From Acidobacteriota bacterium (GTDB taxonomy: Bacteria; Acidobacteriota; Vicinamibacteria; Vicinamibacterales; UBA2999), in the NCBI GenBank assembly GCA_963169195.1, contig CAUJDN010000030.1:1-64000 (forward strand): DNA of 64,000 nt. The letters are read 5' to 3'. The notes beneath the pieces are model-generated. The model was not told the origin of the DNA and ran no database searches. It saw nothing but the letters and a program-made list of their open reading frames with translations. The translations under genes were made by a program, and so were the position numbers. Positions within the stretch are counted from its first letter, which is position 1; each line of letters begins with the position of its first letter. This document shows positions 23,501 to 53,594 of this stretch, piece by piece.

Positions 23501-23601
23501 GCCGCGCTTCGCGCGGTAGGGGCCCTTCGGGCGGGCCGCGCGGCGCGCGGTGGGCCTCGCCGCTCCGCGGCTCGGTGGGGGCCCACCGAGCGACGCGAGG
23601 C
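23501..23601. repeat. Hairpin-repeat array R1 between convergent genes
   Basis: A run of short palindromes separated by GGTAGG/GGTGGG linkers, for example CCGCGCTTCGCGCGG, CCCTTCGGG and CCGCGCGGCGCGCGG, then GGCCCACCGAGC in reverse orientation. It fills the whole gap between the convergent stops at 23500 and 23602. Related to arrays R2 to R4; it may also terminate both genes. Confidence 0.7.
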
Positions 23602-24081
23602 CTACTTCGGCTCGAACCGGAACACGAGGTAGCTGATCGGCCCGTCCAGCTCGCTGAAGCTGTGCGGCGTGCCGGCGGGGATGATGATCACGTCGCCAGG
23701 CCCGACGCGCCGGCTCTCGCCGCCCTGGCGCGTGCCGGTCTGGCTCATCCCCGCGTTCACGCGCGTGAGGTCGGTCGGCTTCGGGTCGCCGAGCGACCCG
23801 CCGGTGACCAGCGTGCCGCGTCCCTTGACGATGTAGTAGGTCTCGGTGACGTCGTTGTGGATGAGCGCGCCGGCCTCGGCCCTGGTGCGATGGAGGCTGG
23901 CCACCGACGCCTTGCCGCCGCGCACGGTGGTTGCCCTGATCGGCTGATCCACGACGTTCTTCGGGACCTGATCCCTCAGCACGGCGTCAATCTCCGCGGC
24001 CGTGATGAACGTCGCCGGCGGCGGGGGCGCGGCGGTGGCCTGCAGGGCGAAGCTCAGCACAACGACGGCAACGTCAATCAT
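23602..24081 (-). CDS. Exported cupin-domain protein
   Basis: A 159-residue small cupin. Residues 1-17 are a signal peptide (VAVVVLSFALQATAAP). The single double-stranded beta-helix has the two cupin motifs in reduced form: ALIHNDVTETYYIVKGRGTLV and GDVIIIPAGTPHSFSELDGPISYLVFRFEPK, giving His, Glu and His as possible metal ligands. The ATG at 24081 follows GGAGG. Substrate unknown. It sits between repeat arrays R1 and R2. Confidence 0.82.
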   Translation of the reverse strand: MIDVAVVVLSFALQATAAPPPPATFITAAEIDAVLRDQVPKNVVDQPIRATTVRGGKASVASLHRTRAEAGALIHNDVTETYYIVKGRGTLVTGGSLGDPKPTDLTRVNAGMSQTGTRQGGESRRVGPGDVIIIPAGTPHSFSELDGPISYLVFRFEPK

Positions 24082-24084
24082 CAC

Positions 24085-24180
24085 GCCTCCTGGTCGAGCG
24101 TTCCCACGCCGCGAAGCGGCGCCTGCCAAAGCGAAGCGAGGCCCACCGTGCGAAGCACGGCCTACCGAGCGAAGCGAGGC
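24085..24180. repeat. Hairpin-repeat array R2
   Basis: Palindromes with GAA centres in the orientation opposite to R1: CGCCGCGAAGCGGCG, CGTGCGAAGCACG and GAGCGAAGCGAGG, joined by CCCACC or CCTACC linkers. It fills the gap after korB and before the cupin gene. Confidence 0.68.
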
Positions 24181-25236
24181 CTACCTGAACCGCGCCTGCA
24201 GTTTCTCCAGCTCCGCGCTCCCTGGGCAGAGCTGCTCGAACGGCAGGCCGGCGAGCGGCTGGTCCGGCAGCTCGTGCTGTTCGGCCATGTCCTTCGAGTC
24301 GGACGCGATGTACAGCAGGCCCGTCAGCACCTCGTTGACCTTCTGGCGCTCGCGGATGTAGGCGTAGGCGCGGTCGCGATCGGTGGGATCGTAGCTGTCG
24401 GCCACCTTGTGCAGCGTGACCCAGCTGCCGTCGTGCAGCATCACGCTCTTCACCGTGCCGGCGTCCTGCTCCGAGGTGATCGCCTCGCGCGGCGCGATGA
24501 AGTCGGCCTGGACGACCTCCACCTGGTGCTCGCGCGTGTAGGCGTAGCTCTTCGTCGAGCCCTCGTGGTCGTTGAACGTGACGCACGGCGAGATGATGTC
24601 GATGAAGGCGAAGCCCTTGTGGGCGAGGCCCGCCTGGATGAGCGGCACGAGCTGCGCCTTGTCGCCCGAGAAGCTCCGCGCGACGAAGGTCGCCCCCAGT
24701 GTCAGCGCCAGCAGCACGCCGTCGATGGCCTCCATCGTGTTGACCTCGCCCTTCTTGCTGGTCGAGCCCGGATCGGCCGAGGCGGAGAACTGGCCCTTGG
24801 TGAGGCCGTACACCCCGTTGTTCTCGAGGAGGTACAGGATGTCCACGTTGCGCCGGATGGCGTGCGACAGCTGGCCGAGCCCGATGGAGAGCGAGTCGCC
24901 GTCCCCGGAGACGCCGATCATCATCAGGCCGGCGTTGGCCGCCCCGGCGCCCGTGGCGATGGCCGGCATGCGGCCGTGCACGGCGTTGAACCCGTGGGCC
25001 TCGCGCAGGAAGTAGGCGGGGGTCTTCGACGAGCAGCCGATGCCCGAGAGCTTCGCCACCGTGTGGGGCGGCACCGACAGCTCCCAGAACGCCTGGATGA
25101 TGGCCGCCGTGATCGAGTCGTGGCCGCAGCCCGCGCAGAGCGTGGTGATGGCGCCTTCGTAGTCGCGGCGCGTCAGCCCGATGGCGTTTCTCTGGAGCGA
25201 CGGATGGTGGACCTTCGGTTTCGCGATGTACGTCAT
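24181..25236 (-). CDS. korB: 2-oxoacid:ferredoxin oxidoreductase, beta subunit
   Basis: A 351-residue TPP-binding beta subunit of a 2-oxoglutarate-type oxoacid:ferredoxin oxidoreductase, which decarboxylates a 2-oxoacid to the acyl-CoA while reducing ferredoxin. TTLCAGCGHDSITAAII near the N-terminus and GIGCSSKTP are iron-sulfur/TPP-region motifs; GDGDSLSIGLGQLSHAIRRN to LLENNGVYGLTKGQ is the TPP signature. The ATG at 25236 overlaps the alpha-subunit stop (ATGA). 2-Oxoglutarate is the most likely substrate from overall resemblance, but pyruvate or branched 2-oxoacids are not excluded. Confidence 0.88.
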   Translation of the reverse strand: MTYIAKPKVHHPSLQRNAIGLTRRDYEGAITTLCAGCGHDSITAAIIQAFWELSVPPHTVAKLSGIGCSSKTPAYFLREAHGFNAVHGRMPAIATGAGAANAGLMMIGVSGDGDSLSIGLGQLSHAIRRNVDILYLLENNGVYGLTKGQFSASADPGSTSKKGEVNTMEAIDGVLLALTLGATFVARSFSGDKAQLVPLIQAGLAHKGFAFIDIISPCVTFNDHEGSTKSYAYTREHQVEVVQADFIAPREAITSEQDAGTVKSVMLHDGSWVTLHKVADSYDPTDRDRAYAYIRERQKVNEVLTGLLYIASDSKDMAEQHELPDQPLAGLPFEQLCPGSAELEKLQARFR

Positions 25237-27032
25237 GCCGCCCTCTCCAGCTTCGCCTTCACGCCCGCAATCACGTGGTGCGCGCTCATCGGGAAGCCCG
25301 CGTAGTAGCGCACCGACTCGAACGCCGCCACGCCCGCGCCGGTCTCGAGCATGAGCAGGCTCCTCAGCTGCGCGTCGCGGTTCTGCTCGACGACGAACGT
25401 CACGTCGTGCTGCCGGACGAACTCGTGCACCTCGTCGCCGAAGGGGAACCCGCGCACGCGCAGGTAGTCGAGGGCGATCCCGTCCTTCGCCATCACGTCG
25501 ATGGCCTCCATGCAGGCGGCGTGGCAGCCGCCCACGGTGATGAGCCCCAACGTCGTGGGAGCGGCCGCCTTCCGCACCACGGGCGCGGGCACGGCCTTCG
25601 CCGCGCTCTGGATCTTGCGTGCGAGGCGCTCCATCACCTCCTCGTACTCGTCCGCGTCCTCGGTGTACGCGCCGTACTTGTTGTGCCCCGAGCCGCGTGT
25701 GAAGTACGCGCCCTTCGGGTGCACGCCCGGGAGGGTCCGCTGCGGGATGCCGTCGCCGTCCACGTCGAGGTAACGGTAGAAGCGCTTCGCCTGGTCGAGC
25801 TCGGCCGCCGACAGCACCTTCCCGCGATCGGGCCGGTACCCATCGTCCCAGGCGAGCTTCGGCACCATCCAGTCGTTCATGCCGATGTCGAGGTCGCTCA
25901 GCACGAAGACCGGCGTCTGGAAGCGCTCGGCCAGGTCGAACGCGTGCACCGCCATCTCGAAGGCCTCGCGCGGATCCGCGGGATACAGGCAGATGTGGCG
26001 CGTGTCGCCGTGCGAGGCATACGCGCAGAGCAGCAGGTCGCACTGCTGCGTGCGCGTGGGCATGCCGGTCGAAGGGCCCGCGCGCTGCACGTCGAAGAGC
26101 ACCGCCGGCACCTCGGCGTAGTAGGCCAGCCCGATGAACTCGTTCATCAGCGAGATGCCGGGGCCCGAGGTGGGCGTGAAGGCGCGCGCGCCGGCCCACG
26201 AGGCGCCGATCACCATGCCGATGGCCGCCAGCTCGTCCTCGGCCTGGATGATGGCGTACCGGTTCCTCTTCGTCGCCTCGTCGCGGCGGTACTTCTGGCA
26301 GAAGCCCTTGAACGCCTCCATCAGCGACGTCGAGGGCGTGATCGGGTACCAGGCGCCGACCGTGGCGCCCGCGTAGACCGCACCGAGCCCGGCGGCCGTG
26401 TTGCCGTCGATGAGGATGGAGTCCTTCGTCTCGTCCATCGGCTCGAGGCGGATGGGCAGCGGGCAGTCGAAGTGGGCCGTCGCGTAGTCGAACCCGAGCG
26501 CGATGGCCTTCGCGTTCGAGTCCAGCAGGGCCGGCTTCTTCGAGAATTTCTCCCGGGTGAGGCCCTTGATGATCCCGGTGTCCATCCCCAGGAGCGCCGC
26601 GAGCGCGCCGGCGCAGGCGATGTTCTTCATCAGGATGCGCTCGCGCACGCCCTTGAACGCGGCGTTGCACATCTCGGCCAGCGGCACGCCCAGGTAGGTG
26701 ACGTCGGGCCGCTTCAGCGTCTCGTCGAGCGGCCAGGTGGAGTCGTGGAGCAGCCACCCGCCGGAGCGGACCTCGGCCACGTCCGTCGCGTAGGTCGCGG
26801 GATTGAGGGCCGCCATCAGGTCGAAGTGCGGCGTCCGCGCGGTGTAGCCGTCCTTGCTGACGCGGATCTCGTACCACGTCGGCAGGCCCTGGATGTTCGA
26901 CGGGAACACGTTCTTGCCCGTCACCGGCACGCCCATCCGGAAGATGGCCTGCATGATGAGGCCGTTGGCGCTCGCCGAGCCCGTGCCGTTGGCCGTTGCG
27001 ATCTTGAAAGCGAAGTCGTTGATCTGGCTCAC
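25233..27032 (-). CDS. korA: 2-oxoacid:ferredoxin oxidoreductase, fused gamma-alpha subunit
   Basis: A 599-residue subunit. Residues 1 to about 190 are the gamma domain (FKIATANGTGSASANGLIMQ, GVPVTGKNVFPSNIQGLPTW); the alpha domain begins at about 210 with the GAWYPITPSTSLMEAF signature of 2-oxoacid oxidoreductases and continues with DELAAIGMVIGASWAGARAFTPTSGPG. Gamma-alpha fusion is normal for the Kor/Oor type. The GTG at 27032 overlaps the stop of the upstream flavoprotein gene (GTGA). With korB it forms the catalytic pair. Confidence 0.88.
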   Translation of the reverse strand: MSQINDFAFKIATANGTGSASANGLIMQAIFRMGVPVTGKNVFPSNIQGLPTWYEIRVSKDGYTARTPHFDLMAALNPATYATDVAEVRSGGWLLHDSTWPLDETLKRPDVTYLGVPLAEMCNAAFKGVRERILMKNIACAGALAALLGMDTGIIKGLTREKFSKKPALLDSNAKAIALGFDYATAHFDCPLPIRLEPMDETKDSILIDGNTAAGLGAVYAGATVGAWYPITPSTSLMEAFKGFCQKYRRDEATKRNRYAIIQAEDELAAIGMVIGASWAGARAFTPTSGPGISLMNEFIGLAYYAEVPAVLFDVQRAGPSTGMPTRTQQCDLLLCAYASHGDTRHICLYPADPREAFEMAVHAFDLAERFQTPVFVLSDLDIGMNDWMVPKLAWDDGYRPDRGKVLSAAELDQAKRFYRYLDVDGDGIPQRTLPGVHPKGAYFTRGSGHNKYGAYTEDADEYEEVMERLARKIQSAAKAVPAPVVRKAAAPTTLGLITVGGCHAACMEAIDVMAKDGIALDYLRVRGFPFGDEVHEFVRQHDVTFVVEQNRDAQLRSLLMLETGAGVAAFESVRYYAGFPMSAHHVIAGVKAKLERAA

Positions 27033-28825
27033 CGCCCCACCGCCTCCAGCGGAATGAACGTCACGCCCGCGTAGGGCTGCTGCAGCACGAACTTGCGCAT
27101 GTCCCACGCGTAGGTGGGGCAGCGCTCGGCGCAGAGCCCGCAGTGCAGGCACACGTTCTCGTCCTTCACCATCACGCGGCCCGTCTGCTTCAGCGGGCCC
27201 GAGACGAAGAGCGCCTGGTCAAGGTTCTCCGCCGGCGCCGTCAGGCGCTGGCGAAGGTCGGCCTCGTCGCCCGGTCTCGCGATCGTCAGGCAGTCGACCG
27301 GACAGATGTCGATGCAGGCGTCGCATTCGATGCACAGCGGATCGGTGAAGTGAGTCTCGACGTCGCAGTTGAGACAGCGCTCGACCTCTTCCTTCGTCTG
27401 GTCGGCGGTGAACCCCTGCTCCACCTCGATGGTCATCTTCGAGAAGCGGTGCGGCATCGACACGTGTGTCATCTTCTGCCGCGCCGCCGGGCTGTAGTTG
27501 TTGCTGTAGGCCCACTCGTGCAGGCCCATCTTGGTGCTCGTCAGCGTCATCGCGTCCGGCGGCCGCTCGGTCACCGGAATGCCCTGGCAGTAGTGGTGGA
27601 GGGAGATGGCCGCCTGGTGCCCGTGCGCCACGGCCCAGATGATGTTGGCCGGCCCGAACGCGGCGTCCCCGCCGAAGAACACGCCCGGCCGCGTGGACAT
27701 GTGCGTCACCTTGTCCACCACGGGCATGTTCCACTTGTCGAATTCGAGCCCCATGTCCCGCTCGATCCAGGGGAAGGCGTTCTCCTGGCCGATCGCCAGG
27801 ATCACCGTGTCGCACGGGACGATCGTGCGGCCTGCCGGCTCCTGAATCAGCCGGCCGCCCTCTTCACGCGCGGTGAAGGTGTCGAACTCCATGCCCGTGA
27901 GCGTCCCGTTCTCCACCACGAAGCGCACCGGCGAGTGGTTCTCGAGGATCTGGACGTGCTCCTCCTCGGCGTCCTCCAGCTCCCAGGGCGAGGCCTTGAA
28001 GTACTTCCGTGTCTTGCGCGCGATGACCTTCACGTCGGTCGCGCCCAGGCGCTTGGCCGAGCGGCAGCAGTCCATGGCCGTGTTGCCCACGCCGATGATG
28101 AGGACGCGCTGGCCCACCGTGTCGATGTGGCCGAAGTGGATGGATTCCAGCCACTCGATGCCGATGAAGATCTGGTCGGTGTCGCGCCGCCCCGGCAGCT
28201 CCAGTTCCTTGCCCTTGGGCGCGCCGCTCCCGACGAACACCGCGTCGTACTCCTTCGATTCCACCAGCGCCCGGAGGCTGGTGACCGGCGTGTCGTAGCG
28301 CATCTCCACGCCCATGCCGGCGATGTAGCCGATCTCCTCGTCGAGGACTTCTTCGGGGAGGCGGAAGGCGGGGATGTTGACGCGCATCAGGCCGCCGGGC
28401 CGGGGGCCTTTCTCGAAGATGGTGCACGCGTAGCCCAGCGGCATCAGGTCGTTGGCCACCGTCAGCGACGACGGGCCCGCGCCGACGAGCGCGATCTTCT
28501 TCCCGTTCCTGGTCTTGGGCGCCGTGGGCAGGCGGTCGCGGATGTCGTCCTTGTGGTCCGCCGCCACGCGCTTCAGGCGGCAGATGGCGACGGGCTTGCC
28601 GTCCACCCGCGTCCGCCGGCACGCCGGCTCGCAGGGGCGGTCGCAGGTCCGTCCGAGAATCCCGGGGAAGACGTTCGACTCGCGATTGACCAGGTAGGCG
28701 TCGCTGAACCGGCCCTGGGCGATGAGGCGGATGTACTCGGGTACGTTCGTGTGGGCCGGGCAGGCCCACTGGCAATCGACGACCTTGTGATAATAGTCCG
28801 GGTTCCCGACGTCCGTCCGCGGCAT
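27029..28825 (-). CDS. GltD-like NAD(P)H:acceptor flavoprotein with ferredoxin domain
   Basis: A 598-residue oxidoreductase. The N-terminus holds a GltD-type [4Fe-4S] domain (DCQWACPAHTNV, then GRTCDRPCEPACRRTRV). An FAD site follows (KIALVGAGPSSLTVANDLMP) and a pyridine-nucleotide site (RVLIIGVGNTAMDCCRSAKR). The C-terminus adds a two-cluster ferredoxin: CIECDACIDICPVDC and CLHCGLCAERCPTYAW. In this operon it probably moves electrons between ferredoxin reduced by KorAB and NAD(P). TATAAT (28840-28835) ends 9 bases before the ATG, so the leader is at most a few bases. Confidence 0.87.
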   Translation of the reverse strand: MPRTDVGNPDYYHKVVDCQWACPAHTNVPEYIRLIAQGRFSDAYLVNRESNVFPGILGRTCDRPCEPACRRTRVDGKPVAICRLKRVAADHKDDIRDRLPTAPKTRNGKKIALVGAGPSSLTVANDLMPLGYACTIFEKGPRPGGLMRVNIPAFRLPEEVLDEEIGYIAGMGVEMRYDTPVTSLRALVESKEYDAVFVGSGAPKGKELELPGRRDTDQIFIGIEWLESIHFGHIDTVGQRVLIIGVGNTAMDCCRSAKRLGATDVKVIARKTRKYFKASPWELEDAEEEHVQILENHSPVRFVVENGTLTGMEFDTFTAREEGGRLIQEPAGRTIVPCDTVILAIGQENAFPWIERDMGLEFDKWNMPVVDKVTHMSTRPGVFFGGDAAFGPANIIWAVAHGHQAAISLHHYCQGIPVTERPPDAMTLTSTKMGLHEWAYSNNYSPAARQKMTHVSMPHRFSKMTIEVEQGFTADQTKEEVERCLNCDVETHFTDPLCIECDACIDICPVDCLTIARPGDEADLRQRLTAPAENLDQALFVSGPLKQTGRVMVKDENVCLHCGLCAERCPTYAWDMRKFVLQQPYAGVTFIPLEAVGR

Positions 28826-28842
28826 ATACGGGGAATTATATA
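28826..28842 (-). promoter_or_regulatory. Promoter of the oxidoreductase operon, perfect -10
   Basis: TATAAT on the minus strand at 28840-28835, nine bases from the ATG at 28825. No ribosome site is present. A -35 would fall inside repeat array R3. Confidence 0.5.
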
Positions 28843-29156
28843 GGGCCGCGCGTTGCGCGGTGGGCCTCGCCGCTCACCCGGCTCGGTGGGCGGGCCTTCG
28901 ACCCGTGGAGTTGCCCACACGCCGCAGGCGTGCCTACCGCAACGCGGCCCACGCGCCGGAGGCGCGCCCACGGCGCGAAGCGCCGCCTGCTCAGTGGGCC
29001 GCGCTTCGCGCGGGGGGCTCGACCGGGCCGACCGTCGGTCGGTGGGCCTCGCGGTTCACGCGGCTCGGTGGGCGGGCCTTTGGCCCGTGGAGTTGCCCAC
29101 GCGCCGCAGGCGTGCCCACCCCGACGCGGCCCCATGCGCCGGAGGCGCGCCCACTC
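28843..29156. repeat. Hairpin-repeat array R3, two tandem compound units
   Basis: Two successive copies of one compound unit (28843-28988 and 28996-29154) fill this 331-bp gene-free gap. Each runs: GCGC palindrome, GGTGGGCCTCGC..., GGGCCTT(C/T)G.CCCGTGG, then inverted units GCCGCAGGCGTGCC and GCGCCGGAGGCGCGCCCAC. The second copy has an extra ~30 bp near its start. The same unit recurs at 53416. No gene is present here; long open frames that cross it are artefacts of the GC-rich repeats. Confidence 0.8.
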
Positions 29157-29984
29157 CTACCGCTGCTTGCTCCGGTACTCCGCGCTGTTGCGCAGCTCCC
29201 GGGCCACGTCGCGCTCCGTCCAGTGGTCCTTGAGCACGCGCTGCACCCAGCCCTCGCTTGCCGGATCGGGCTCGCGTTCGAGGACGCTCAGGTATGCGCG
29301 CCTGACAATCGCGCGGGCGTCGTCCACCGAGATGTTGTTCCGCTGCCGGTACTCCGGGCTGTTCATGATGGACTCGCGCACGTCGTGCTCGTCCCACCCG
29401 TGGTGCATGATCTGGTTGCGGAACGACGCCTGTCCGTTCTGGTCCGGCGCCCGGCCCAGCAGATCCTGGTAGGCCCGCCGGATGATGCGGTCAGCCGCCG
29501 CCGCGGACATCCCGGATCCCTGAGTGCGAAGCTCGTCCCGCACCCGGCGCTCCGTCCAGCCGTCGTCGGTCATCAGTCGGCGGTAACGCGACAGCTCGTC
29601 GCGGCTCGGAGCCCGGCCCACGACGTCCTCGTACGCGTTCCGAATCACGCGATCGACGTCGTAGCTCGCGCGATCCCTCGTGGAGCGTTCGCCGTGGGGC
29701 CAGTAGTCACGCCGCTCGCGCAGGTCCTCGCGGATGTCGGTCTCGTTCCAGTGGTCCTCGTGAATGCGGACGCGATAGCGGCGCATCTCGCTCTCGTCCG
29801 GGCGACGACTGAGCACGTCGTTGAACGCCCGCACGATCAGGGCGTCCACCCAGCCGCCACCGCTTCGGTACTGGGCGGCATCGCCGGTTCGCCCGTCCAG
29901 GGTCGTGGCCGCCGCCTGCCCCGCCGGGGCGACGACGGCGAGCGCCGCCACGAGTGCCATCAGCCGAATCGCTCTCATGTTCAT
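29157..29984 (-). CDS. Exported DUF4214-like repeat protein
   Basis: About 275 residues. A signal peptide (RLMALVAALAVVAPAGQAAA) is followed by four repeats of about 50 residues, each of the form RAYxDxLGRxPDxxxxxxYxxxxxxxxWxExDVRxxLRxSxEY, for instance IIRRAYQDLLGRAPDQNG. This resembles DUF4214, a helical module named from phycobilisome linkers and often seen in surface proteins. Two ATGs compete: 29984 and 29978; the AAGGAG site fits 29978 better. Function unknown. It is 14 bp after the PPK2 gene and may share its transcript. Confidence 0.75.
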   Translation of the reverse strand: MNMRAIRLMALVAALAVVAPAGQAAATTLDGRTGDAAQYRSGGGWVDALIVRAFNDVLSRRPDESEMRRYRVRIHEDHWNETDIREDLRERRDYWPHGERSTRDRASYDVDRVIRNAYEDVVGRAPSRDELSRYRRLMTDDGWTERRVRDELRTQGSGMSAAAADRIIRRAYQDLLGRAPDQNGQASFRNQIMHHGWDEHDVRESIMNSPEYRQRNNISVDDARAIVRRAYLSVLEREPDPASEGWVQRVLKDHWTERDVARELRNSAEYRSKQR

Positions 29985-29998
29985 GGCTCCTTGGTCGA

Positions 29999-30904
29999 TC
30001 AGTCCTTCTCGGCCGTCAGCATGCGCCGCACTTCCTGCAGCTCCGCCTTCTTGGCGTCCGACATCTTCGGGTAGCGCAGATCCAGGCCTTCGAGCGCGTG
30101 GTAGACGATGGCGGCCACCGCCAGCCGCGTGAACCACTTGTGGTCGGCCGGGACGATGTGCCAGGGGGCCCACTCGGTACTGGTGTTCGTGAACACGTCC
30201 TCGTAGGCCCGCATGTAGTCGTCCCAGTGAACCCGCTCCTTCGCGTCGTTGACCGACAGCTTCCAGTTCCTGTCCTCGTCATCGATCCGGGCGAGGAACC
30301 GCCGCTTCTGCTCGGCCTTGGAGACATTGAGGAAGAACTTCAGCAGGACGACGCCGTTGTCCACCAGATAACGCTCGAAGTTGTTGATCTCCCGGTAGCG
30401 GCGCTTCCAGATCCCCTTGTCCTTCAGGTGCGCCGGCAACTGCTGCGCAGCGAGGATTTCCTTGTGAACCCGCGTCACCAGGACCTCCTCGTAATACGAG
30501 CGGTTGTGGATGCCGATGCGCCCGCGCTCCGGCAGCGCCCTCATCGAGCGCCACAGGTAGGTGTGGTCGCGCTCTTCGGCCGAGGGCGCCTTGAAGTTGA
30601 ACACCTGGCAGCCCTGCGGGTTCACGCCCGACATGACGTGACGGATGGTGCCGTCCTTCCCCGCCGCGTCCATCGCCTGGAAGACCAGGAGCAACGAGTG
30701 CGTGTCCTGCGCGTACAACACGTTCTGCTGCTTCGACAGCCGGCGGATCCCATCGGCCAGCAGGCTGGAGGCCTCCTTCTCGCCTCGAATGGTGCCGGTC
30801 CAGGCCGGGTCGTACTTCTTCAGGCGAATCCGCGTCCCCGGAGGGGCAACGACGTGCTTCAGCAGCCGCCGGATCCGCTTGGCCTCTTCTTTGGGCGTCA
30901 TCAT
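29999..30904 (-). CDS. ppk2: Polyphosphate kinase 2 family protein
   Basis: A 301-residue PPK2, which transfers phosphate between polyphosphate and a nucleotide. Visible motifs are FQAMDAAGKDGTIRHVMSGV (P-loop region), NPQGCQVFNFKAPSAEERDH with the lid, and the Trp/Arg-rich RIGIHNRSYYEEVLVTRVH segment. Length fits a class I or III single-domain enzyme acting on ADP/AMP or GDP. The start is ATG at 30904 or 30901. No clear ribosome site. Confidence 0.9.
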   Translation of the reverse strand: MMTPKEEAKRIRRLLKHVVAPPGTRIRLKKYDPAWTGTIRGEKEASSLLADGIRRLSKQQNVLYAQDTHSLLLVFQAMDAAGKDGTIRHVMSGVNPQGCQVFNFKAPSAEERDHTYLWRSMRALPERGRIGIHNRSYYEEVLVTRVHKEILAAQQLPAHLKDKGIWKRRYREINNFERYLVDNGVVLLKFFLNVSKAEQKRRFLARIDDEDRNWKLSVNDAKERVHWDDYMRAYEDVFTNTSTEWAPWHIVPADHKWFTRLAVAAIVYHALEGLDLRYPKMSDAKKAELQEVRRMLTAEKD

Positions 30905-30935
30905 GGGTGTCAGACCGCGAGGGACTGGGACCTCG

Positions 30936-31835
30936 TCACAGGCGTGTGGTCCAGTCGGTGGACATGAACCAGTAGTCGTACCGTTCGGTAAGCCAGCCCG
31001 TCTCCTTGTGGTAGGTGAGCCAGGCATCCAGGAAGTTGAGGAGATCCGGGTCCCCCTTCCGAACCGCCAGCGCCGCGCTCGCGGCCTCGAGCTCGCCACC
31101 CTCCGGGAGGAACAACGCGTTGCCGCTGGCCTGGACCATCACACGGACGGCCGGGGACATCACGATGGCCGCATGCGCCTTGCCCTCGAGGACCGGCGCC
31201 AGCGGTTCGTCGTTGATGTCGACCCTGATCAGTCTCGCCCTGGGGAAACGGCGGGCCGCCAGCTCCTCCATGCCCGTCCCCTGGTTGACGACCAGGGAGA
31301 CCTCGGGCCGGTTGAAGTCCTCCGCACGCGTGAAGGTGCCGGCCGTGGCCCGCCCGGCGACGAGGCTGACCGCCCCCTTCGATGTGGCCTGGGTGTAGTT
31401 GACCATCAAGGCGCGCGCGGGTGTGATCCACAGCCCCGATGCGATCACGTCGAAGTGGCCGTCCATCAGGTCGCCGACGATGTGCGGCCAGGAGGTCGGC
31501 ACGATCTCGAGCTCGACGCCCATTTCCTCGGCCAGCTTCCGGCCCAGATCGATGCTGAACCCCATGAGCTCGCCGTCCCGGTCGCGCATCACCCATGGCA
31601 TGGTCGGCGCCACACCCAGGCGCAGGATGCCCCGGCGCTTGATGGTGGCAATCGTGTCCAGGGCCGGCCTCGCATAGACCGGTGGCACGTCGGGCGCCGG
31701 CGGCCGGGGGGCCACGGCCTCGCCGCCGGGATACCCGGGCGAGGGCGGCGATTGAGGGGGCTGCTGGGCGGCCGAGACGACCCCGACGGAGCCGGACAGG
31801 ACCAGCGCCAACAGCGCACCGCGCATGAGCGTCAC
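30936..31835 (-). CDS. Amino-acid-type solute-binding protein
   Basis: A 299-residue periplasmic binding protein of SBP family 3. After the signal peptide (ALLALVLSGSVGVVSAAQ) comes a Pro-rich linker, then IKRRGILRLGVAPTMPWVMRD and GELMGFSIDLGRKLAEEMGVELEIV, followed by FDVIASGLWITPARA. A GTG at 31835 has AGGAGG at good spacing and was chosen over the ATG nine bases on. No ABC permease or ATPase is adjacent, so the transporter partner is unknown; similar orphan proteins serve sensors. Compare the SBP domain fused to a symporter at 33208-35355. Confidence 0.85.
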   Translation of the reverse strand: MTLMRGALLALVLSGSVGVVSAAQQPPQSPPSPGYPGGEAVAPRPPAPDVPPVYARPALDTIATIKRRGILRLGVAPTMPWVMRDRDGELMGFSIDLGRKLAEEMGVELEIVPTSWPHIVGDLMDGHFDVIASGLWITPARALMVNYTQATSKGAVSLVAGRATAGTFTRAEDFNRPEVSLVVNQGTGMEELAARRFPRARLIRVDINDEPLAPVLEGKAHAAIVMSPAVRVMVQASGNALFLPEGGELEAASAALAVRKGDPDLLNFLDAWLTYHKETGWLTERYDYWFMSTDWTTRL

Positions 31836-31848
31836 GGCAGTCGACCTC

Positions 31849-32490
31849 CTACTGACCCCAGCCCGCGGGACTGAAGTAGACGCGGTGCGCGTCGTCGGAC
31901 TCGTCGACGGCGTTGAAACCGTGGCCCGCGCGCGTCACCTTGAACCGGAACTGCCCGAGCTCGAGCCGATCGCGGGTCCAGCGGCCGGTGAACCGTTCGC
32001 CCCCGGCGTAACCATCGGTCGTGCCGCTCGGTGTGATGCGGACCTCGACGCTCGTGCGTTCCCGCTCGTCGTAACCACGGAAGCTTCCCACGGCCCACGA
32101 CGGCACCTCGTCGCGATGCTTGTCGTTGCGGCCCGCGACGATGGCCGCAATGATGGCGGCGCCTGCGATGGCCCCCGCCGCGGCTGCCGCGCCGCCGCCG
32201 CTGCCGCCCCGGCCCACGCGGAACTCTCCGGCGCATCCGCGGTCGACCCACACGCCGCGGCCGTCGTACCCCCAGGTACGCCCGAGTTCGCAGCGAGCGA
32301 AGAGGGACGTCTGACTGACGAGCGACGCCCGGTTGTCGGTGTCGGCCCGGCAGTAGCGGTAGCGATGGTTCCGGCTTTCGCAACGGATGATCCGCTCGTC
32401 GGCCTTCAGGGGCACGGCAGGCGTCGCCAACACGGCCACGAGGCCCATCGCCACGCCACGGGTCAGAACGCCGAGGGTCTGTTGCACCAT
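31849..32490 (-). CDS. Exported DUF3011 protein
   Basis: A 213-residue exported protein. A signal peptide (VAMGLVAVLATPAVPLKA) precedes a DUF3011 module: RIIRCESRNHRYRYCRADT and then SLFARCELGRTWGYDGRGVWVDRGC, with four cysteines that could form disulfides. A Gly/Ala-rich stretch with a hydrophobic helix follows (AAAAAGAIAGAAIIAAIV), then a C-terminal beta domain. The ATG at 32490 is supported by the signal. TACACT (32506-32501) lies ten bases upstream and the 19-bp motif site D about 35 bp upstream. Function unknown. Confidence 0.8.
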   Translation of the reverse strand: MVQQTLGVLTRGVAMGLVAVLATPAVPLKADERIIRCESRNHRYRYCRADTDNRASLVSQTSLFARCELGRTWGYDGRGVWVDRGCAGEFRVGRGGSGGGAAAAAGAIAGAAIIAAIVAGRNDKHRDEVPSWAVGSFRGYDERERTSVEVRITPSGTTDGYAGGERFTGRWTRDRLELGQFRFKVTRAGHGFNAVDESDDAHRVYFSPAGWGQ

Positions 32491-32525
32491 GACGATCCCG
32501 AGTGTACGGAACGGTTCGACGAGGC

Positions 32526-32544
32526 GACTATCCGATTCCCGCCA
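32526..32544 (-). promoter_or_regulatory. Upstream motif, site D
   Basis: Plus-strand GACTATCCGATTCCCGCCA, 16 of 19 identical to site A. Nineteen bases separate it from the TACACT hexamer before the DUF3011 gene. Confidence 0.45.
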
Positions 32545-32616
32545 CGGCGCCGGTGACGTGCGAAACGGCGATACACCGCGGCGCGATTCGTGCGAAGCTG
32601 GAGTCGAGGTGTTGCG

Positions 32617-33183
32617 ATGAGAGCGCGGCTTCTTCTGGCGTCGGGGATCGCGGGGTTGGCCTTCTCGGGCGCGTGTCAGGGACAGCACGCGTCCCCCGAC
32701 GCGCGCGACCACCCGCACATCGCGGGCGCGCTGGAGGAAACGCCGCCGACCATCGACGACGCGGCCCGCGCGACGTACTGGGGCGGCCTCGCCAGGCAGG
32801 TCACGCTGACGGGCGGCGCATTCGACGGACCCACGGGGCAGCACGTCGAGCTGGTGCGCCAGCACTACGTGAGCGGCGACCTCGAGGGCGACGGTGCCGT
32901 AGACGCCGTGGTGGTGCTGTCGGTGACCAACGCCGGTGAGGAGACGGGACAGTATCTCGCCGTGCTGCGGCACCTGGGCACGGACACCATCAGCCTCGGG
33001 ACCGCGCTGCTGGGCCACCCCGTCGAGGTGGAACGCGTTCACATCGAGGGCCGGCGCATCGTCGTGGACCTGCTGCGGCGCCCGGCCGCGGACCCGGCGT
33101 CTTCCGAGCACGCCCGGATGGCCTACGAGCTGGGGCGCGGCGAGCTCGTGAAGGTCGCCGAGGAGGCCGGCGCCGCCCGGTGA
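32617..33183 (+). CDS. Putative lipoprotein, function unknown
   Basis: A 188-residue protein with an N-terminal signal ending in GLAFSGAC, a plausible lipobox that would place it as a lipoprotein. The rest has DGAVDAVVVLSV, like an FG-GAP/dockerin-style calcium loop, and beta strands, but no family was recognised. The ATG at 32617 has GAGG eight bases upstream. It is alone on the plus strand, divergent from the DUF3011 gene. Confidence 0.7.
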   Translation: MRARLLLASGIAGLAFSGACQGQHASPDARDHPHIAGALEETPPTIDDAARATYWGGLARQVTLTGGAFDGPTGQHVELVRQHYVSGDLEGDGAVDAVVVLSVTNAGEETGQYLAVLRHLGTDTISLGTALLGHPVEVERVHIEGRRIVVDLLRRPAADPASSEHARMAYELGRGELVKVAEEAGAAR

Positions 33184-33192
33184 TTGGCGTTC

Positions 33193-33208
33193 GCCCGCAG
33201 ACGCGGGC
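33193..33208. terminator. Hairpin between convergent genes
   Basis: GCCCGC, AGAC, GCGGGC: a perfect 6-bp stem with a 4-base loop between the stops at 33183 and 33208. No U-tract follows on either strand. Confidence 0.4.
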
Positions 33209-35355
33209 TACCACCACCCGAGCACGTTGGACGCGATGCTCCAGCGGGGCATTCGCACCTCCTGGGCCCGTCCTTCGATCCAGTAGCGATGGGCATCGGC
33301 GAAGCTGCCGAGTGCGCGGGTGAACTCGATCCACGTATTCACGAAGGCGCGCAACGACTCGGCTCCCCGGGGCACGGCATAGGCCATCACTCCGCGGGTG
33401 TTGTCGCCCTCCGGCAGGACGGCCGCCAGGGCGGGCTGGATGCGGCTGGCATAGGTGGCCGTGTCGATGGGAAGCACGATCGCGTCGAGATCCCCGAGCG
33501 TTCCCGCGTTCAGAACGTCCTGCAGCGGCCGCGGCTCGATCGTCGCCAGCGGCAGCTTGCGCTGCACCGCCTCCACGAAACGCGGAGACGGAACGCCGAG
33601 CCGCAGCGGTCGCCCGACGAGGGCGGGTCCCTCGACGAACTCGCCCCGGCGATGGTCCGGCACGAGGAACCCGATGCGCTCCTCGTTGTAGGCCGCGCTG
33701 AACTCGACGGCGTCGGCGGTCGCCATGGTCACGACCAGGCCCGACATCACGATGTCGCACACGCCGCCGTCGAGCATCTCGGCCAGCCTCGATCGCTCGA
33801 TGGCGATGAACCGCGGCGACACGCCGAGCGACGACGCGAGCGCATGGGCCATCTCGACGTCGAAGCCCACGAGCTGGCCCTCCGGGTTCAGGAAGGCGTA
33901 GGGCACGGCATCGGTGAACACGCCCACGCGCAGAATCCCTCGTGCCCGCACGTCGCCCAGACGCTGAGCCGGCGGCCCGGGCGGGGCTTCCGGCGCCGTC
34001 GGCGGACGCACCTCGGCGGGAGGCAGTCCATGCCGGAGCACGAACCCCTCGAGGGCGGCCACACCCGAGGGGACGGGCGGGACGATGTGGGCGAAGACGA
34101 ACCGCGTACCACCGATGAACGCGCCCACGACCGCCGCGCTGACGAGCGCGAGGCGACCGAGGCGTTTCACGTCCACGCGCAGGCGCCCCAGCAGGCTCGC
34201 GGCCACGAGCATCGACAGGGCGGCCGTGTGCATGGCCGCCGCCAGCGACCCGAACCTCACGTTCAGCACGCTCGAGACGGTGAACAGGTTGAACAGGTCC
34301 GCCGGCAGCTGGAGCAGGTCCAGCAGGAACGGCACGGCGGCGTTGATGTTCCCGAACATGCTCAGCACGCCGGCCGTGCCCAGGCTGATCCACTGCGAGG
34401 CCGACAGGCTCGCCGCGGAGAACCAGGCGGCAAAGGGAAAGAAGGCGAGCGTCAGGATTTTCCCGGTGTGCGGAAAGTTGAACAGGAGCGGCACGGCGAC
34501 GCCGATGGTGCGTTCCGCGTCCTCCTCGGTCACGCCCTGCTCCTGCAGCAACTGCTTGTTCGCCTCCGCGATCATCGGCAGGACGACGAAATAGTCGCCG
34601 GCGGCAAACGCCGTCAGGGCCGCGGTCTGCAGCGCGCTCACGAACCGCGGGTACTGGATCGGCGTGAGCAGCGCCACCAGCGCGGGCAACACCCACCACG
34701 CCAGGAGCACCGCCAGGCCGATGTAGACGACGAACCACACCTGCAGGCGAAGGAACTCGTCCACTCGAAGCACGCCGGCGGCCTCGGCCGTCATGGCGAA
34801 CACCCCGAGCGGCGCCAACCGCGTGATGAGCCGGCTGATCCGGCCCATCGCCTCGTTGAATCCCTCGAGCGCGTCCAGCAACGGGCGCTTTCGGGCGTCC
34901 TCCATCGTGCCGAGCGCCATGCCGGCCAGCAGGCCGAACAGCACGACGGCCGGCATGGCATTGAAGGCCAGCGAATGGAAGACGTTCGAGGGGATGTAGA
35001 TGTCGAGCCAGTTGATGGGCGCCGACGGCGGGTGGTCCGCCGAGAAGGCGAAGCCGCCTCGCCCCGCCGGCAGGGCCAGCGATGAGGCGAACACGACCGC
35101 GAGCACCGCGAGCCAGAAGAGCAGCAGGAGCACGCCGCCGTGGACCGCGAGGCGCTTGAGGTCTTCGGCGGTCCGGCCCCCGAGCCCGGCGATGACCGAA
35201 CCCAGCACGTACGGCAGGACGGTGACCTGGAGCAGGCGGGTGAAGACGTCCGCGCCGATGCCCAGCGGCCACACGGCCTCGCCCAGGAACAGCCCGGTCG
35301 CGAGACCGGCCATCAGTCCGGCGAGGACACGCTGGAAGAAGCGCTGATCCGTCAT
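33208..35355 (-). CDS. SDF-family symporter fused to periplasmic solute-binding domain
   Basis: A 715-residue fusion. Residues 1 to about 395 are a dicarboxylate/amino-acid:cation symporter (SDF fold), with helices and hairpins recognisable but key motifs altered: TAFAAGDYFVVLP in place of the serine-rich HP1 loop, NFPHTGK in place of NMDGT, and FGNINAAVP in HP2. An extra helix at about 402-422 follows, then a linker and, from residue 468, an SBP family 3 domain (RARGILRVGVFTDAVPYAFL). The extra helix would place that domain in the periplasm. It starts 19 bp after the nucleotide-translocase gene, probably one operon. Confidence 0.88.
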   Translation of the reverse strand: MTDQRFFQRVLAGLMAGLATGLFLGEAVWPLGIGADVFTRLLQVTVLPYVLGSVIAGLGGRTAEDLKRLAVHGGVLLLLFWLAVLAVVFASSLALPAGRGGFAFSADHPPSAPINWLDIYIPSNVFHSLAFNAMPAVVLFGLLAGMALGTMEDARKRPLLDALEGFNEAMGRISRLITRLAPLGVFAMTAEAAGVLRVDEFLRLQVWFVVYIGLAVLLAWWVLPALVALLTPIQYPRFVSALQTAALTAFAAGDYFVVLPMIAEANKQLLQEQGVTEEDAERTIGVAVPLLFNFPHTGKILTLAFFPFAAWFSAASLSASQWISLGTAGVLSMFGNINAAVPFLLDLLQLPADLFNLFTVSSVLNVRFGSLAAAMHTAALSMLVAASLLGRLRVDVKRLGRLALVSAAVVGAFIGGTRFVFAHIVPPVPSGVAALEGFVLRHGLPPAEVRPPTAPEAPPGPPAQRLGDVRARGILRVGVFTDAVPYAFLNPEGQLVGFDVEMAHALASSLGVSPRFIAIERSRLAEMLDGGVCDIVMSGLVVTMATADAVEFSAAYNEERIGFLVPDHRRGEFVEGPALVGRPLRLGVPSPRFVEAVQRKLPLATIEPRPLQDVLNAGTLGDLDAIVLPIDTATYASRIQPALAAVLPEGDNTRGVMAYAVPRGAESLRAFVNTWIEFTRALGSFADAHRYWIEGRAQEVRMPRWSIASNVLGWW

Positions 35356-35374
35356 GCGGGGCGACGAACCGCCC

Positions 35375-36688
35375 TCAGGCCGGCGGTGGTGCCGTCAGCC
35401 GATCGTATGCGGAGACCAGTCGGAACGCCACCAGCAACGCAGCGACGACGACCACGATGTTGGTCAAGGCGAAGCCGGAGGGCCCGAGCGCCAGGTAGTG
35501 GGTGCCGGCGAACACGACCGCGGCCGACAGGAGGTCGCCGGTCCGGACGAAGAACGTGTCGATCGCCTGCTTGGCCTTGAACTTCTGCTCCCGGGTCGTC
35601 GGCAGCCACAGCATCTGCTTCGCCGTGTTCATCACCGAGTAGTCGGCCGAGTTCTCGGCGGTCTTGACGACGCGGACGGCCGCCAGGCCCGCGCCGAGCG
35701 CGGCGGCGCCGTACGCGCCCAGCGCGAGGATCGGGAGCGTCAGAAGGGCTCCCCTGAATCCGAATCGCTTCACCAGGCGTGACACGACGAATGCCTGGAG
35801 CAGCACGGAGGCCACGTTCACCCAGAAGAAGTAGCTGCCGTAGAAGCTCCCGATGAAGGCCCCCCGGTCGAATCCGGCCGTCGCCGAGGCCAGCTCGGCC
35901 GCCTGCGCGGTGACCAGTCGGGCCAGGATGAACTCGCCCGTCGAGTTGACGATGTTCAGGAGCACGAGGAGGAGAGCGACCAGACGCAGATAGGGATTGG
36001 ACAGCACGAGGCCGAAGCCGCCCCCCTTCGATGGCGTCGCCGCGCCGGTGGCCGTGGACGGCCTGGACCACACCCTGGTGTAGAGCGCCAGGTGCAGCAG
36101 CAGCAGGGCGGCCGCAATCTGCATCATCACCCAGGGGGACACGCCGTTCGAGAAGAGCGCCTGCGCCGCCGCGGCCCCCAGCGGCGCACCCGCGGTCGAG
36201 CCGACAGCGATCAGCGGGAACAGGCGGTCCCCTTCGGCCTTGCTGTAGACATCGTTCGCGAACGACCAGAACTGCGCGATCATCGTCAGGCTGAAGATGC
36301 CGACCCAGACGTAGAACGCGAAACCGACGTACGGAATCCCGAGCCGGCCAGCAACGACGAAGAGCTCGATGCAGGCGACGAAGGCGACGACCACCGTGAC
36401 GAGCAGCCGGCTCCTGGACAGGCGCGACACCAGCCAGCCGTACAGGGGCACATAGCCCAGCAGCACCGCCGCCTGCGCGCCCGCCGCGTAGGACTTCAGC
36501 TCTGCACCGCCCGTGGTGAGGATGAGCGGCTCGCGAACCGTCTTGAGGATGTAGTAGGCCAGCAGCAGGAGGAAGACGTTCAGGAACATCAACAGCGCGT
36601 GCGCCCCTTCGCCGGGGCGCACGTCGCCGAAGAGGCGAAGCGCGCGGTCGAGTCGCGAACCCGGGCCGGTGGCCTCCACGCCAGACAT
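35375..36688 (-). CDS. ATP/ADP translocase-like (Npt1/Npt2 family) membrane protein
   Basis: A 437-residue membrane protein with about 12 helices. The N-terminus (GEGAHALLMFLNVFLLLLAY, then YILKTVREPLIL) and the SFANDVYSKAEGDRLFPLIA segment match the NTP/NDP translocase family related to the MFS, known from obligate intracellular bacteria and plastids and also found without known function in free-living lineages. The C-terminal loop has NTAKQMLWLPTTREQKFKAKQAID, typical of the family. Whether it moves nucleotides is unproven. It lies 44 bp after the gene at 36733-37590. Confidence 0.85.
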   Translation of the reverse strand: MSGVEATGPGSRLDRALRLFGDVRPGEGAHALLMFLNVFLLLLAYYILKTVREPLILTTGGAELKSYAAGAQAAVLLGYVPLYGWLVSRLSRSRLLVTVVVAFVACIELFVVAGRLGIPYVGFAFYVWVGIFSLTMIAQFWSFANDVYSKAEGDRLFPLIAVGSTAGAPLGAAAAQALFSNGVSPWVMMQIAAALLLLHLALYTRVWSRPSTATGAATPSKGGGFGLVLSNPYLRLVALLLVLLNIVNSTGEFILARLVTAQAAELASATAGFDRGAFIGSFYGSYFFWVNVASVLLQAFVVSRLVKRFGFRGALLTLPILALGAYGAAALGAGLAAVRVVKTAENSADYSVMNTAKQMLWLPTTREQKFKAKQAIDTFFVRTGDLLSAAVVFAGTHYLALGPSGFALTNIVVVVAALLVAFRLVSAYDRLTAPPPA

Positions 36689-36732
36689 CGTCAGGGTGCG
36701 TTCAGCGCGCGAGCATGCGCCGGTTCCACGCC

Positions 36733-37590
36733 CTATCGGCCGCGGATGACGCGAACGGTCACGGCGAACTCGCCCGCGTTGTCGCCCACCACGTCGTCGT
36801 TGATGCCCAGCCAGAGAGGCCCGGCGCCCGGCATGGGGAGCGGGTCGGTCTGGTTGCCAATCGGGAACGGCACGCCGCCGCCCACACGCCCGATGAGCGC
36901 ACCCGCCAGGAACTCCGGCGCGGGCGAGCTGGCCGCCTTGCGCCCCGTCAGCGAACCGGCCGCCCGGGCCTTGTCATTGGCGTCGGCCGAGAGCTGGATT
37001 TCGCCCCGCACCGAGAACTCCACGCGATCGTCACGCCGCACGGTGATGTTGGTGGCCGTCCACTGCTGGTTCGCCGGGACACGGATGGCGCCCGCGGGGA
37101 GTTGCGTGGCCGTGCCGCCGCCCGCGCTGCCGGGCTGCTGCGGGTAGTTCCCGAGGTAGATGCGCGCCACCTCTGACATCCGGAACCGGCGCTCACCGCC
37201 CGCCTGGAAGGTGACGCTGCGAGGCTCGTTCGGCTTGGCCGAGCCCTCACCGCCCTCGATGTTCACCAGCCGGCCGCGGAGCAGCTCGCCGCCCCGGGTG
37301 ACGAGCACGTGATCGGCGCCCTGCGCCGCCTGGGTCTCGTTGGCGGGCAGGTTGCCGGCATTCCCGCCGACGTCGATGACCAGCGCGTCCCGCATGGGGA
37401 ACTGCCGCTGGTCCGCCTGCGTCACGCGCACGTAGACGGCATCGGTCTGGCGATTCCAGTCTTCGAAACGCCCCGAGACGCGTTCACCGTTGCGGCGCAC
37501 CACGGTGACCTGCTCCTGCGCGTACGGCACCACGTCCATCAGAAGCGTGGCGAGCACGAGTGCAAGGAAGCCGGTGATGGTCTTTGACAT
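36733..37590 (-). CDS. Exported protein, function unknown
   Basis: A 285-residue exported protein. A signal peptide (TGFLALVLATLLMDVVPYAQ) is followed by two Sm-like or SH3-like strands (VTVVRRNGERVSGRFEDWN, VLVTRGGELLRGRLVNIEGG) and, at the C-terminus, a beta-sandwich (VPANQQWTATNITVRRDDRVEF and GPLWLGINDDVVGDNAGEF) that resembles the PA-IL lectin-like fold. That resemblance is tentative. TATACT (37602-37597) ends six bases before the ATG, and motif site A is about 30 bp upstream. Confidence 0.72.
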   Translation of the reverse strand: MSKTITGFLALVLATLLMDVVPYAQEQVTVVRRNGERVSGRFEDWNRQTDAVYVRVTQADQRQFPMRDALVIDVGGNAGNLPANETQAAQGADHVLVTRGGELLRGRLVNIEGGEGSAKPNEPRSVTFQAGGERRFRMSEVARIYLGNYPQQPGSAGGGTATQLPAGAIRVPANQQWTATNITVRRDDRVEFSVRGEIQLSADANDKARAAGSLTGRKAASSPAPEFLAGALIGRVGGGVPFPIGNQTDPLPMPGAGPLWLGINDDVVGDNAGEFAVTVRVIRGR

Positions 37591-37619
37591 CCCTTCAGTA
37601 TACCGACCGCGATGTGCCC

Positions 37620-37638
37620 GGCTATCCGATTTGCGCCA
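37620..37638 (-). promoter_or_regulatory. Upstream motif, site A
   Basis: Plus-strand GGCTATCCGATTTGCGCCA; on the gene strand it reads TGGCGCAAATCGGATAGCC. Seventeen bases separate it from TATACT, the -10 of the gene at 37590. It is the reference for the five-site motif. Confidence 0.5.
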
Positions 37639-37717
37639 ATGTGAACTTCTGCAGTGGATCGGCCGTTGACCGTGACGATCGACTGCTTTCGATGCTATCA
37701 AGGAGACTGGTGGCTTC

Positions 37718-38983: not shown

Positions 38984-38995
38984 AGGAGAAACCAC

Positions 38996-39259
38996 ATGTG
39001 CAGATTCCTGATCTGGGGCTTCGCCCTGGCCTATGCGGGGGCCCTGATCCTCCTGGGCATCGGCACGTTCGGGCTCTTCGGCCAGGAACGCGACCCGCTC
39101 TCGGGGGTCTTCCTGGTTCCCCTGGGCCTGCCATGGAACCTGCTGGGGGGCGGACTGCCGGCCCCATGGCTCCCGCTCGTTGGGATTCTGGCACCAGCCG
39201 TCAACCTGGCCATCCTCGTCGCCCTCTGCCGGGCCTTCCGGGCGTCGGCCGCTTCCTGA
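38996..39259 (+). CDS. Small membrane protein
   Basis: An 87-residue protein with three hydrophobic segments (LIWGFALAYAGALILLGIGT, GVFLVPLGLPWNLL, LPLVGILAPAVNLAILVAL). It is preceded by AAGGAG at proper spacing and starts 13 bp after the PhoD stop, so it is probably co-transcribed. No family recognised. Confidence 0.65.
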   Translation: MCRFLIWGFALAYAGALILLGIGTFGLFGQERDPLSGVFLVPLGLPWNLLGGGLPAPWLPLVGILAPAVNLAILVALCRAFRASAAS

Positions 39260-41332: not shown

Positions 41333-41338
41333 GCGCCC

Positions 41339-43749: not shown

Positions 43750-43829
43750 TGCTGTCTCCATGGCTCGAACGATGGCCCACGGGCGGTGCCGCAAGGCTCG
43801 GTGAGCGATCATCCGTGATCGTGCCTGTT

Positions 43830-44261: not shown

Positions 44262-44362
44262 GCGTTGCTTGCGACGCAGTGGTCCTCTCCAAGGATCCTC
44301 GACCTGCAGGCACGGCGATACTTCCCTTTGGTGAAGGGGCGAGCGAGTGGTGCGGGGCCGGC

Positions 44363-48114: not shown

Positions 48115-48295
48115 CCTCGGACTGTAACCCAAAGCCGCCGCGATCTCGGGTGAATCCGTTGAAGCCTCGAACGCATCCGTGTCGAAGTCGGACCCGGAGA
48201 TCGAGTCCCCGATCGTTGCGGCGAAGGACGGGCCGAGGAACAAACCGGCCTGCCAGCCATTGCGGTTGTCCGCGGTTGTCCGATGTGAAGTCGTC

Positions 48296-48314
48296 GCGAA
48301 TCCGGATTGCGCCA
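48296..48314 (-). promoter_or_regulatory. Upstream motif, site C
   Basis: Plus-strand GCGAATCCGGATTGCGCCA, 15 of 19 identical to site B at 53309 and sharing ATTGCGCCA. It lies upstream of the histidine-kinase gene, about 50 bp from the TTG at 48243. Confidence 0.4.
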
Positions 48315-48321
48315 GCCCGAC

Positions 48322-50610: not shown

Positions 50611-50683
50611 CCAGCCGTCACTGATAACCCGGTTCGAGGCGTTGCATCAAGCACGAGATGTGACACGACCTCACGATCGTCCG

Positions 50684-53260: not shown

Positions 53261-53308
53261 TTTCGTTCCTCCCGCAAATCTCGATCCTCGACCTCCGGGA
53301 GGGGCGGC

Positions 53309-53327
53309 GGCTATCCGTATTGCGCCA
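53309..53327 (-). promoter_or_regulatory. Upstream motif, site B
   Basis: Plus-strand GGCTATCCGTATTGCGCCA, 17 of 19 identical to site A. It lies 48 bp before the start of the kinase-like gene; a GAGGAT hexamer lies 19 bp further on. Confidence 0.5.
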
Positions 53328-53330
53328 CAG

Positions 53331-53594
53331 CAACTTGGCGGGGCCGCCCGTCGGCCGGGGGGCCGCGTTTCGCGGGGGGCCCGACCGGGCCCGACCGGGC
53401 CGCCCGTCGGGCGCTGGGCCGCGCTTCGCGCGGGGGCCTCGCCGCTCACGCGGCTCGGTGGGCGGGCCTTCGGCCCGTGGGGTTGCCCACACGCCGCAGG
53501 CGTGCCCACCGCGACGCAGCCCACGCGCCGGAGGCGCGCCCACGCGGCGCAGCCGCGCCTTCCCGAAGCGCCGCCCACGCGGCGCAGCCGCGCC
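53331..53594. repeat. Hairpin-repeat array R4
   Basis: Another copy of the compound unit (53416-53543), flanked by further palindromes such as CGCGGCGCAGCCGCG. The unit shows GGGCCGCGCTTCGCGCGG, CGGCTCGGTGGGCGGGCC, CCTTCGG.CCCGTGG and ACGCCGCAGGCGTGCCC in the same order as in R3. It occupies the gene-free 334-bp gap between the kinase-like gene and the PP2C regulator. Open frames crossing it on either strand are not supported. Confidence 0.8.

What the first reader, a model, noticed from the sequence alone, without database searches (positions are those of the whole stretch)
23501..53594. Interspersed arrays of odd palindromes sharing a ~130-160 bp compound unit
Four intergenic spots (23501-23601, 24085-24180, 28843-29156, 53331-53594) consist of short palindromes with three-base centres (TTC, GAA, GCA, GGA) joined by GGTGGGC/GGTAGGC linkers, first in one orientation and then inverted. 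Three of them (28843, 28996, 53416) are copies of the same compound unit 25 kb apart, so the unit has moved or been copied. It could be a non-autonomous REP-like mobile element, a terminator cassette or an RNA of stacked hairpins. It also creates spurious open frames.
Basis: partly seen in the sequence, partly recalled or inferred. Interest (0 to 1): 0.68.

Follow-up and report, generated by a model that had tools for sequence, protein, structure and literature searches.

The report
Stop-codon-anchored REP-like hairpin arrays
Short DNA hairpins separated by a constant spacer sit directly behind the stop codons of many genes in two related Acidobacteriota species; they resemble the REP repeats of other bacteria, except that each hairpin's sequence varies while its ability to fold is kept.

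Summary
All four spots contain tandem ~19-bp modules, GTRGGC + 5-6 bp stem + 3-base loop, often in two inverted halves, and two of them hold three copies (88-91% identical) of a ~130-145 bp compound unit. The family is dispersed: a query for two tags 13 bp apart, with no palindrome requirement, finds 49 sites in this genome and 77 in a congener (G004). About half of the distinct inserts are perfect palindromes, against 1-2 expected, with 13-15 different arm sequences, so structure is kept but not sequence. Three other congeners and 246 sampled genomes of the phylum lack the family. Arrays lie between tandem or convergent genes, never divergent. The first tag often is the upstream gene's stop codon: GTAGG in 12 of 13 genes, against 9% of genes overall. 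Eight of nine comparable arrays are shared with G004.

This is the anatomy of GTAG-tagged REP/BIME repeats. Two REP features fail here: stem sequence is not conserved, and the genome's two RAYT-like transposases are flanked by other inverted repeats. The arrays are not U-tract terminators. New variant of a known kind.

The parts
23501..23601 (.). Array A1: hairpins in two inverted halves that fill the gap between two convergent genes
   Evidence: sequence; module at 23581-23605 -; stop codons on both sides
23498..23500 (+). TAG stop of gene 22871-23500, inside the first tag GTAGGC of A1
23602..23604 (-). TAG stop of the cupin-domain gene 23602-24081, inside the first tag of the other half of A1
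24085..24180 (-). Array A2: four hairpins in one orientation, behind the TPP-enzyme gene
   Evidence: modules 24141-24165 - and 24160-24184 -
24181..24183 (-). TAG stop of the TPP-enzyme gene, inside the first tag of A2; TAG also in G003, which has no array
28843..28987 (.). Array A3, compound unit copy 1 (two inverted halves)
   Evidence: 90% identical to the 53416 unit; modules 28913-28937 - and 28947-28971 -
28996..29154 (.). Array A3, leading hairpin (28996-29013) and compound unit copy 2 (29025-29154)
   Evidence: 88% identical to the 53416 unit over 29025-29154; module 29095-29119 -
29157..29159 (-). TAG stop (GTAGG context) of the DUF4214-domain gene ending at 29157, directly before A3
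53331..53415 (.). Array A4, leading hairpins upstream of the compound unit
53416..53559 (.). Array A4, compound unit copy 3, used as BLAST query
   Evidence: modules 53485-53509 - and 53519-53543 -; orthologous array in G004, L168
53560..53594 (-). Array A4, further hairpins next to the stop codon
53595..53597 (-). TAG stop (GTAGG context) of the response-regulator/SpoIIE gene ending at 53595

Best explanation
A lineage-restricted family of GTAG-tagged, REP/BIME-like hairpin repeats. Shown: each module is GTRGGC plus a 5-6 bp palindrome with a three-base centre; modules are strung in tandem and in inverted halves; arrays sit at gene 3' ends, often with the first tag overlapping a TAG stop; most comparable arrays are shared by two sister species and absent from three other congeners; stems are kept as pairs while their sequence differs between modules. 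Inferred: modules were seeded by a process that reads tag plus hairpin rather than stem sequence (a single-strand HUH/RAYT-like enzyme or copy-choice replication), then multiplied locally by tandem duplication. Insertions survived where the tag could end a gene harmlessly. They now persist as 3'-UTR hairpins that, like REPs close to a stop codon in E. coli, may shield mRNA 3' ends and slow ribosomes at the stop; arm-to-arm templated repair or weak selection keeps the stems paired.
For: Tag and hairpin association far above shuffles in two genomes. 13-15 different arms among perfect stems. TAG stop in 13 of 13 upstream genes against 36.5%, GTAGG in 12 of 13 against 9.4%, no divergent context among 40 sites. 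Arrays shared with G004 at 8 of 9 comparable genes, none seen in G001-G003. In well-aligned orthologous hairpins stems are identical or show a compensated pair change while loops differ. Head, palindrome, position and supplied TAG match published GTAG REPs. TnpA_REP tolerates swapped upper stems.
Against: Stem sequence is not conserved, unlike most REP families. No RAYT flanked by these hairpins was found. Perfect-module copy number is dozens, below many REP families. Any effect on mRNA or translation is untested. G000 and G004 are sister genomes, so events are not many and independent; gene calls are home-made; the genome is a draft.
Confidence: 0.7

Rival explanations
1. Active RAYT-mobilised REP/REPIN family: one of the genome's RAYT-like transposases moves these units today.
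For: GT(A/G)G head and hairpin are RAYT substrates elsewhere; two RAYT-like genes in the genome; one, C19, is shared with G004 and under purifying selection, dN/dS 0.13; a GTAG REPtron exists in the same order.
Against: Both RAYT-like genes are flanked by their own unrelated inverted repeats; G004's other RAYT is frameshifted with another repeat; arrays are mostly old and shared.
Confidence: 0.1
2. Satellite-like repeat without a transposase: slippage and unequal exchange multiply the 19-bp module and the compound unit, and replication template switching between arms keeps palindromes perfect, with no function.
For: Tandem period 19; matching modules every ~143 bp in G004 C80 and C95; the same genome has other tandem repeats anchored at stop codons: 41 of 257 gene ends against 12 of 277 gene starts have one within 12 nt; the TPP gene has a different repeat in G004 at the same stop.
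Against: Does not explain dispersal of the tag and compound unit to many contigs, nor why TAG in GTAGG is favoured.
Confidence: 0.15
3. Bidirectional transcription terminators.
For: Location between convergent or tandem genes; inverted halves face both genes.
Against: None of nine terminator-like matches in 20000-39000 falls in arrays A1-A3, and the arrays hold no T runs; G001-G003 do without them at the same genes. Rho-dependent termination was not tested.
Confidence: 0.05

Closest known systems
GTAG-tagged REP superfamily (Di Nocera 2013, PMC3733652)
   Same: Unpaired GT(A/G)G head, 5-13 bp stem, short loop, clusters and inverted dimers, gene 3' ends, TAG supplied to flanking ORFs
   Different: Stem sequence differs from module to module; head-to-tail tandem runs are common here but under-represented in most listed genomes; no linked RAYT
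Bacterial REPs/BIMEs with RAYT, and REPINs (Nunvar 2010, PMC2817692; PMC3116915)
   Same: GT(A/G)G head directly before a GC-rich palindrome with a 2-4 base centre; mosaic arrays in alternating orientation
   Different: RAYTs are described there as always flanked by the cognate REP; the RAYT-like genes of this genome are not
TIRYT elements (Di Nocera 2013)
   Same: Present in this genome: both RAYT-like genes have inverted repeats, one starting GGGGACAG, which fits the published GGGGWSAS motif
   Different: Those repeats are unrelated to the window arrays
GTAG REPtron in locus L041 (same order)
   Same: GTAG-tagged palindromes, in inverted orientation around a RAYT
   Different: Fixed stem TGTCCGGC and loop TTCA; different RAYT; not found in this genome

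Membership tests
GTAG-tagged palindromic repeat superfamily | GT(A/G)G motif at one end, not base-paired | tested here: met
   Tag ranks first among all permutations in two genomes
GTAG-tagged palindromic repeat superfamily | Short palindrome, stem 5-13 bp, small loop | tested here: met
   21/42 and 32/57 perfect 5-bp stems with 3-base loop
GTAG-tagged palindromic repeat superfamily | Extragenic, mostly between tandem or convergent genes, near 3' ends | tested here: met
   0 of 40 divergent; TAG/GTAGG stops
GTAG-tagged palindromic repeat superfamily | Family consensus: stem conserved with a few alternative pairs | tested here: not met
   13-15 different arms; only tag, loop type and closing C-G are conserved
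RAYT-mobilised REP (REPtron) | RAYT gene flanked by the same repeat in inverted orientation | tested here: not met
   Flanks of both RAYT-like genes are other repeats; a RAYT in the missing ~3% of the draft cannot be excluded
RAYT-mobilised REP (REPtron) | High copy number, usually >100 per genome | tested here: inconclusive
   49 tag-to-tag sites by one strict pattern; degenerate modules not counted
Mobile element | Precise presence/absence between close strains | tested here: inconclusive
   8 of 9 shared with G004, absent from G001-G003; no strain-level genomes
Intrinsic terminator | GC-rich hairpin followed by a U run | tested here: not met
   No match in A1-A3; A4 lies outside the scanned stretch but shows no T run
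Known structured RNA (Rfam 15) | Covariance-model match | tested here: not met
   0 matches in the window at gathering scores

The most novel reading that the evidence does not exclude
A repeat family selected or repaired purely for structure: only the tag and the ability to form a three-base-loop hairpin are inherited, and gene 3' ends in this genus act as docking sites where each species fills the same place, from the stop codon on, with its own short repeat.
Probability: 0.25. Interest if true: 0.66.

Novelty: new variant of a known kind. Interest (0 to 1): 0.43.

Why it matters
If right, the family separates what is needed to keep a REP-like repeat going (tag and fold) from what is not (stem sequence), inside one pair of sister species with dozens of orthologous and paralogous hairpins to compare. 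It adds GT(A/G)G repeats in a lineage for which the GTAG census read here reports only TIR-type transposases, and the overlap with TAG stops gives a clean test of how REP-like repeats settle at gene ends and what they do to those genes. Other stop-anchored repeats of the same genome suggest that gene 3' ends are a general landing or growth site.

Tried and rejected
A linked RAYT was looked for in this genome, in G004 and in ten further relatives' loci; the flanks were other repeats except at the L041 REPtron, whose repeat differs. U-tract terminators and Rfam RNAs: none in the arrays. A preference for the RNA strand, judged from G-U pairs, had too few cases to decide. The hexamer-before-hairpin scan on 360 kb was noisy and was replaced by the permutation and tag-only tests. 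Literature searches on tandem repeats in Vicinamibacter and on RAYT in Acidobacteriota gave nothing on this family.

Full report
What is there. The four spots are arrays of short modules. Each module is GTRGGC, then a 5-6 bp perfect or near-perfect palindrome whose centre is three bases, mostly TTC, TGC or TCC on the tag strand; the next tag follows at once, giving a period of 19, which Tandem Repeats Finder also recovers. Arrays often have two inverted halves. A ~130-145 bp compound unit is present at 28843-28987, 29025-29154 and 53416-53559 (88-91% identical), with more diverged copies on other contigs and in G004.

Not chance. In 760 kb of this genome (15%) and 278 kb of the congener G004, the tag GTRGGC precedes a loop-3 hairpin more often than any permutation of its bases. 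The G004 stretches were chosen partly around known hits, so that count is not an unbiased sample. When sites are chosen only by two tags 13 bp apart, 21 of 42 distinct inserts here and 32 of 57 in G004 are perfect palindromes; shuffled pairs give 1.0 and 1.8. The perfect stems use 13 and 15 different arms. The stricter pattern hits 31 times in G000 and 0 times for the reversed control; among 246 other genomes of the phylum it gives three isolated hits, none palindromic. Among the five congeneric genomes only G000 and G004 are rich. The window lies in a draft genome whose closest named relatives are Acidobacteriota metagenome assemblies, one labelled Vicinamibacterales.

Gene context. The arrays abut gene 3' ends. 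A1 fills exactly the gap between two convergent stop codons. Of 40 intergenic palindromic sites in G000 and G004 none lies between divergent genes; divergent gaps are 54 of 286 in the background. Counting genes once, including 22871-23500, 13 of 13 upstream genes in G000 stop with TAG (background 36.5%) and 12 of 13 with GTAGG (background 9.4%); leaving out genes whose stop lies inside the search pattern, 6 of 7 have GTAGG. The backgrounds come from a home-made gene caller and include array genes.

Comparison with congeners. At eight of nine array genes with a G004 ortholog, G004 has an array at the same gene end; at the ninth, the TPP gene, G004 has a different GATTG repeat directly behind the same GGTAG. 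G001, G002 and G003 show no such hairpins in the 90 nt displayed at the orthologous ends. Their stops are mixed: TAG at some genes (TPP in G003; the L257 and L284 genes), TGA or TAA at others (L268, L273, L276). So the TAG predates the array in some cases and may have come with it in others. In orthologous hairpins that align well, stems are usually identical while loops differ, and two stems differ by a compensated pair change (GCGGC-TGC-GCCGC against GCGCC-TGC-GGCGC behind the SpoIIE gene; a like change behind the L258 gene). The array alignments are short and partly ambiguous, and poorly aligned hairpins show many unpaired differences, so the compensated changes are suggestive rather than counted proof.

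Transposases. PF01797 finds two genes here; both match REP_Tyr_transpos just below its cut-off. The C19 gene is syntenic in G004 with dN/dS about 0.13 and is flanked by GGGGACAGTCCCTGTGACAAA inverted repeats; the C25 gene is flanked by GGGGCCTGGCACGGT inverted repeats. This is the TIRYT arrangement of Di Nocera et al., who report such genes from Acidobacteria. A REPtron, a RAYT flanked by GTAG-TGTCCGGCTTCAGCCGGAC, occurs in another genome of the order (L041), so GTAG palindromes with their transposase exist nearby, but not for this family.

How it probably works. Shown: tag, fold, position, sharing between sister species, and conservation of pairing over sequence. Inferred: seeding by a process that reads tag plus hairpin, survival where the tag ends a gene harmlessly, local amplification, and persistence as 3'-UTR hairpins. 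E. coli TnpA_REP needs GTAG and a stem-loop but tolerates swapped upper stems, which would let stems drift; REPs within 15 nt of a stop codon are reported to stall ribosomes. No U tract follows the hairpins. Folding of A3 and A4 on the gene strand is moderately better than shuffles (z -2.8 and -2.2).

A wider pattern. In the same genome other short tandem repeats (GGTTCTGG, GGTCTTGA, GTTCGAAGCACGGGG and others) also start at stop codons: 41 of 257 gene ends have one within 12 nt against 12 of 277 gene starts, and 37 of 46 are G-rich on the coding strand. The hairpin arrays may be one case of a general tendency; this is the basis of the novel reading, which the evidence does not exclude but does not establish.

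Verdict. By anatomy this belongs with the GTAG-tagged REP/BIME repeats. It is not filed as a RAYT-mobilised REP, because a linked transposase was looked for and not found and the stem is not conserved. New variant of a known kind; interest moderate.

Noticed in passing
L083-L090 (G000 contig C35), also contigs C14 and C30 of G000: Other short tandem repeats (GGTTCTGG, GGTCTTGA, GTTCGAAGCACGGGG, AGGTGCGGGC) also begin at stop codons, 41 of 257 gene ends against 12 of 277 gene starts, mostly G-rich on the coding strand.
   Followed up: partly
L158, L159 (TPP gene 3' end); L327, L337 (G003): At orthologous gene ends congeners carry different short repeats: GATTG-type in G004 at the TPP gene, a GGTGCTGCACGA-type 12-mer in G003 at the L257 and L273 genes.
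   Followed up: partly
L092:4485-5057 and L091:9462-10136: Two RAYT-like (TIRYT-type) genes flanked by GGGGACAGTCCCTGT and GGGGCCTGGCACGGT inverted repeats; the first is syntenic in G004 with dN/dS about 0.13.
   Followed up: yes
L041:1360-2080: REPtron in another genome of the order: RAYT flanked by GTAG-TGTCCGGCTTCAGCCGGAC repeats in inverted orientation.
   Followed up: partly
L156:18107-18569: RAYT in G004 split by a frameshift, with CGCCGGGGCTTCAGCCCCGGCG-type palindromes in its flanks.
   Followed up: partly
G004 C80:15236-15683 and C95:51609-52205: Matching modules recur about every 143 bp, which looks like a tandem amplification of a compound unit.
   Followed up: no
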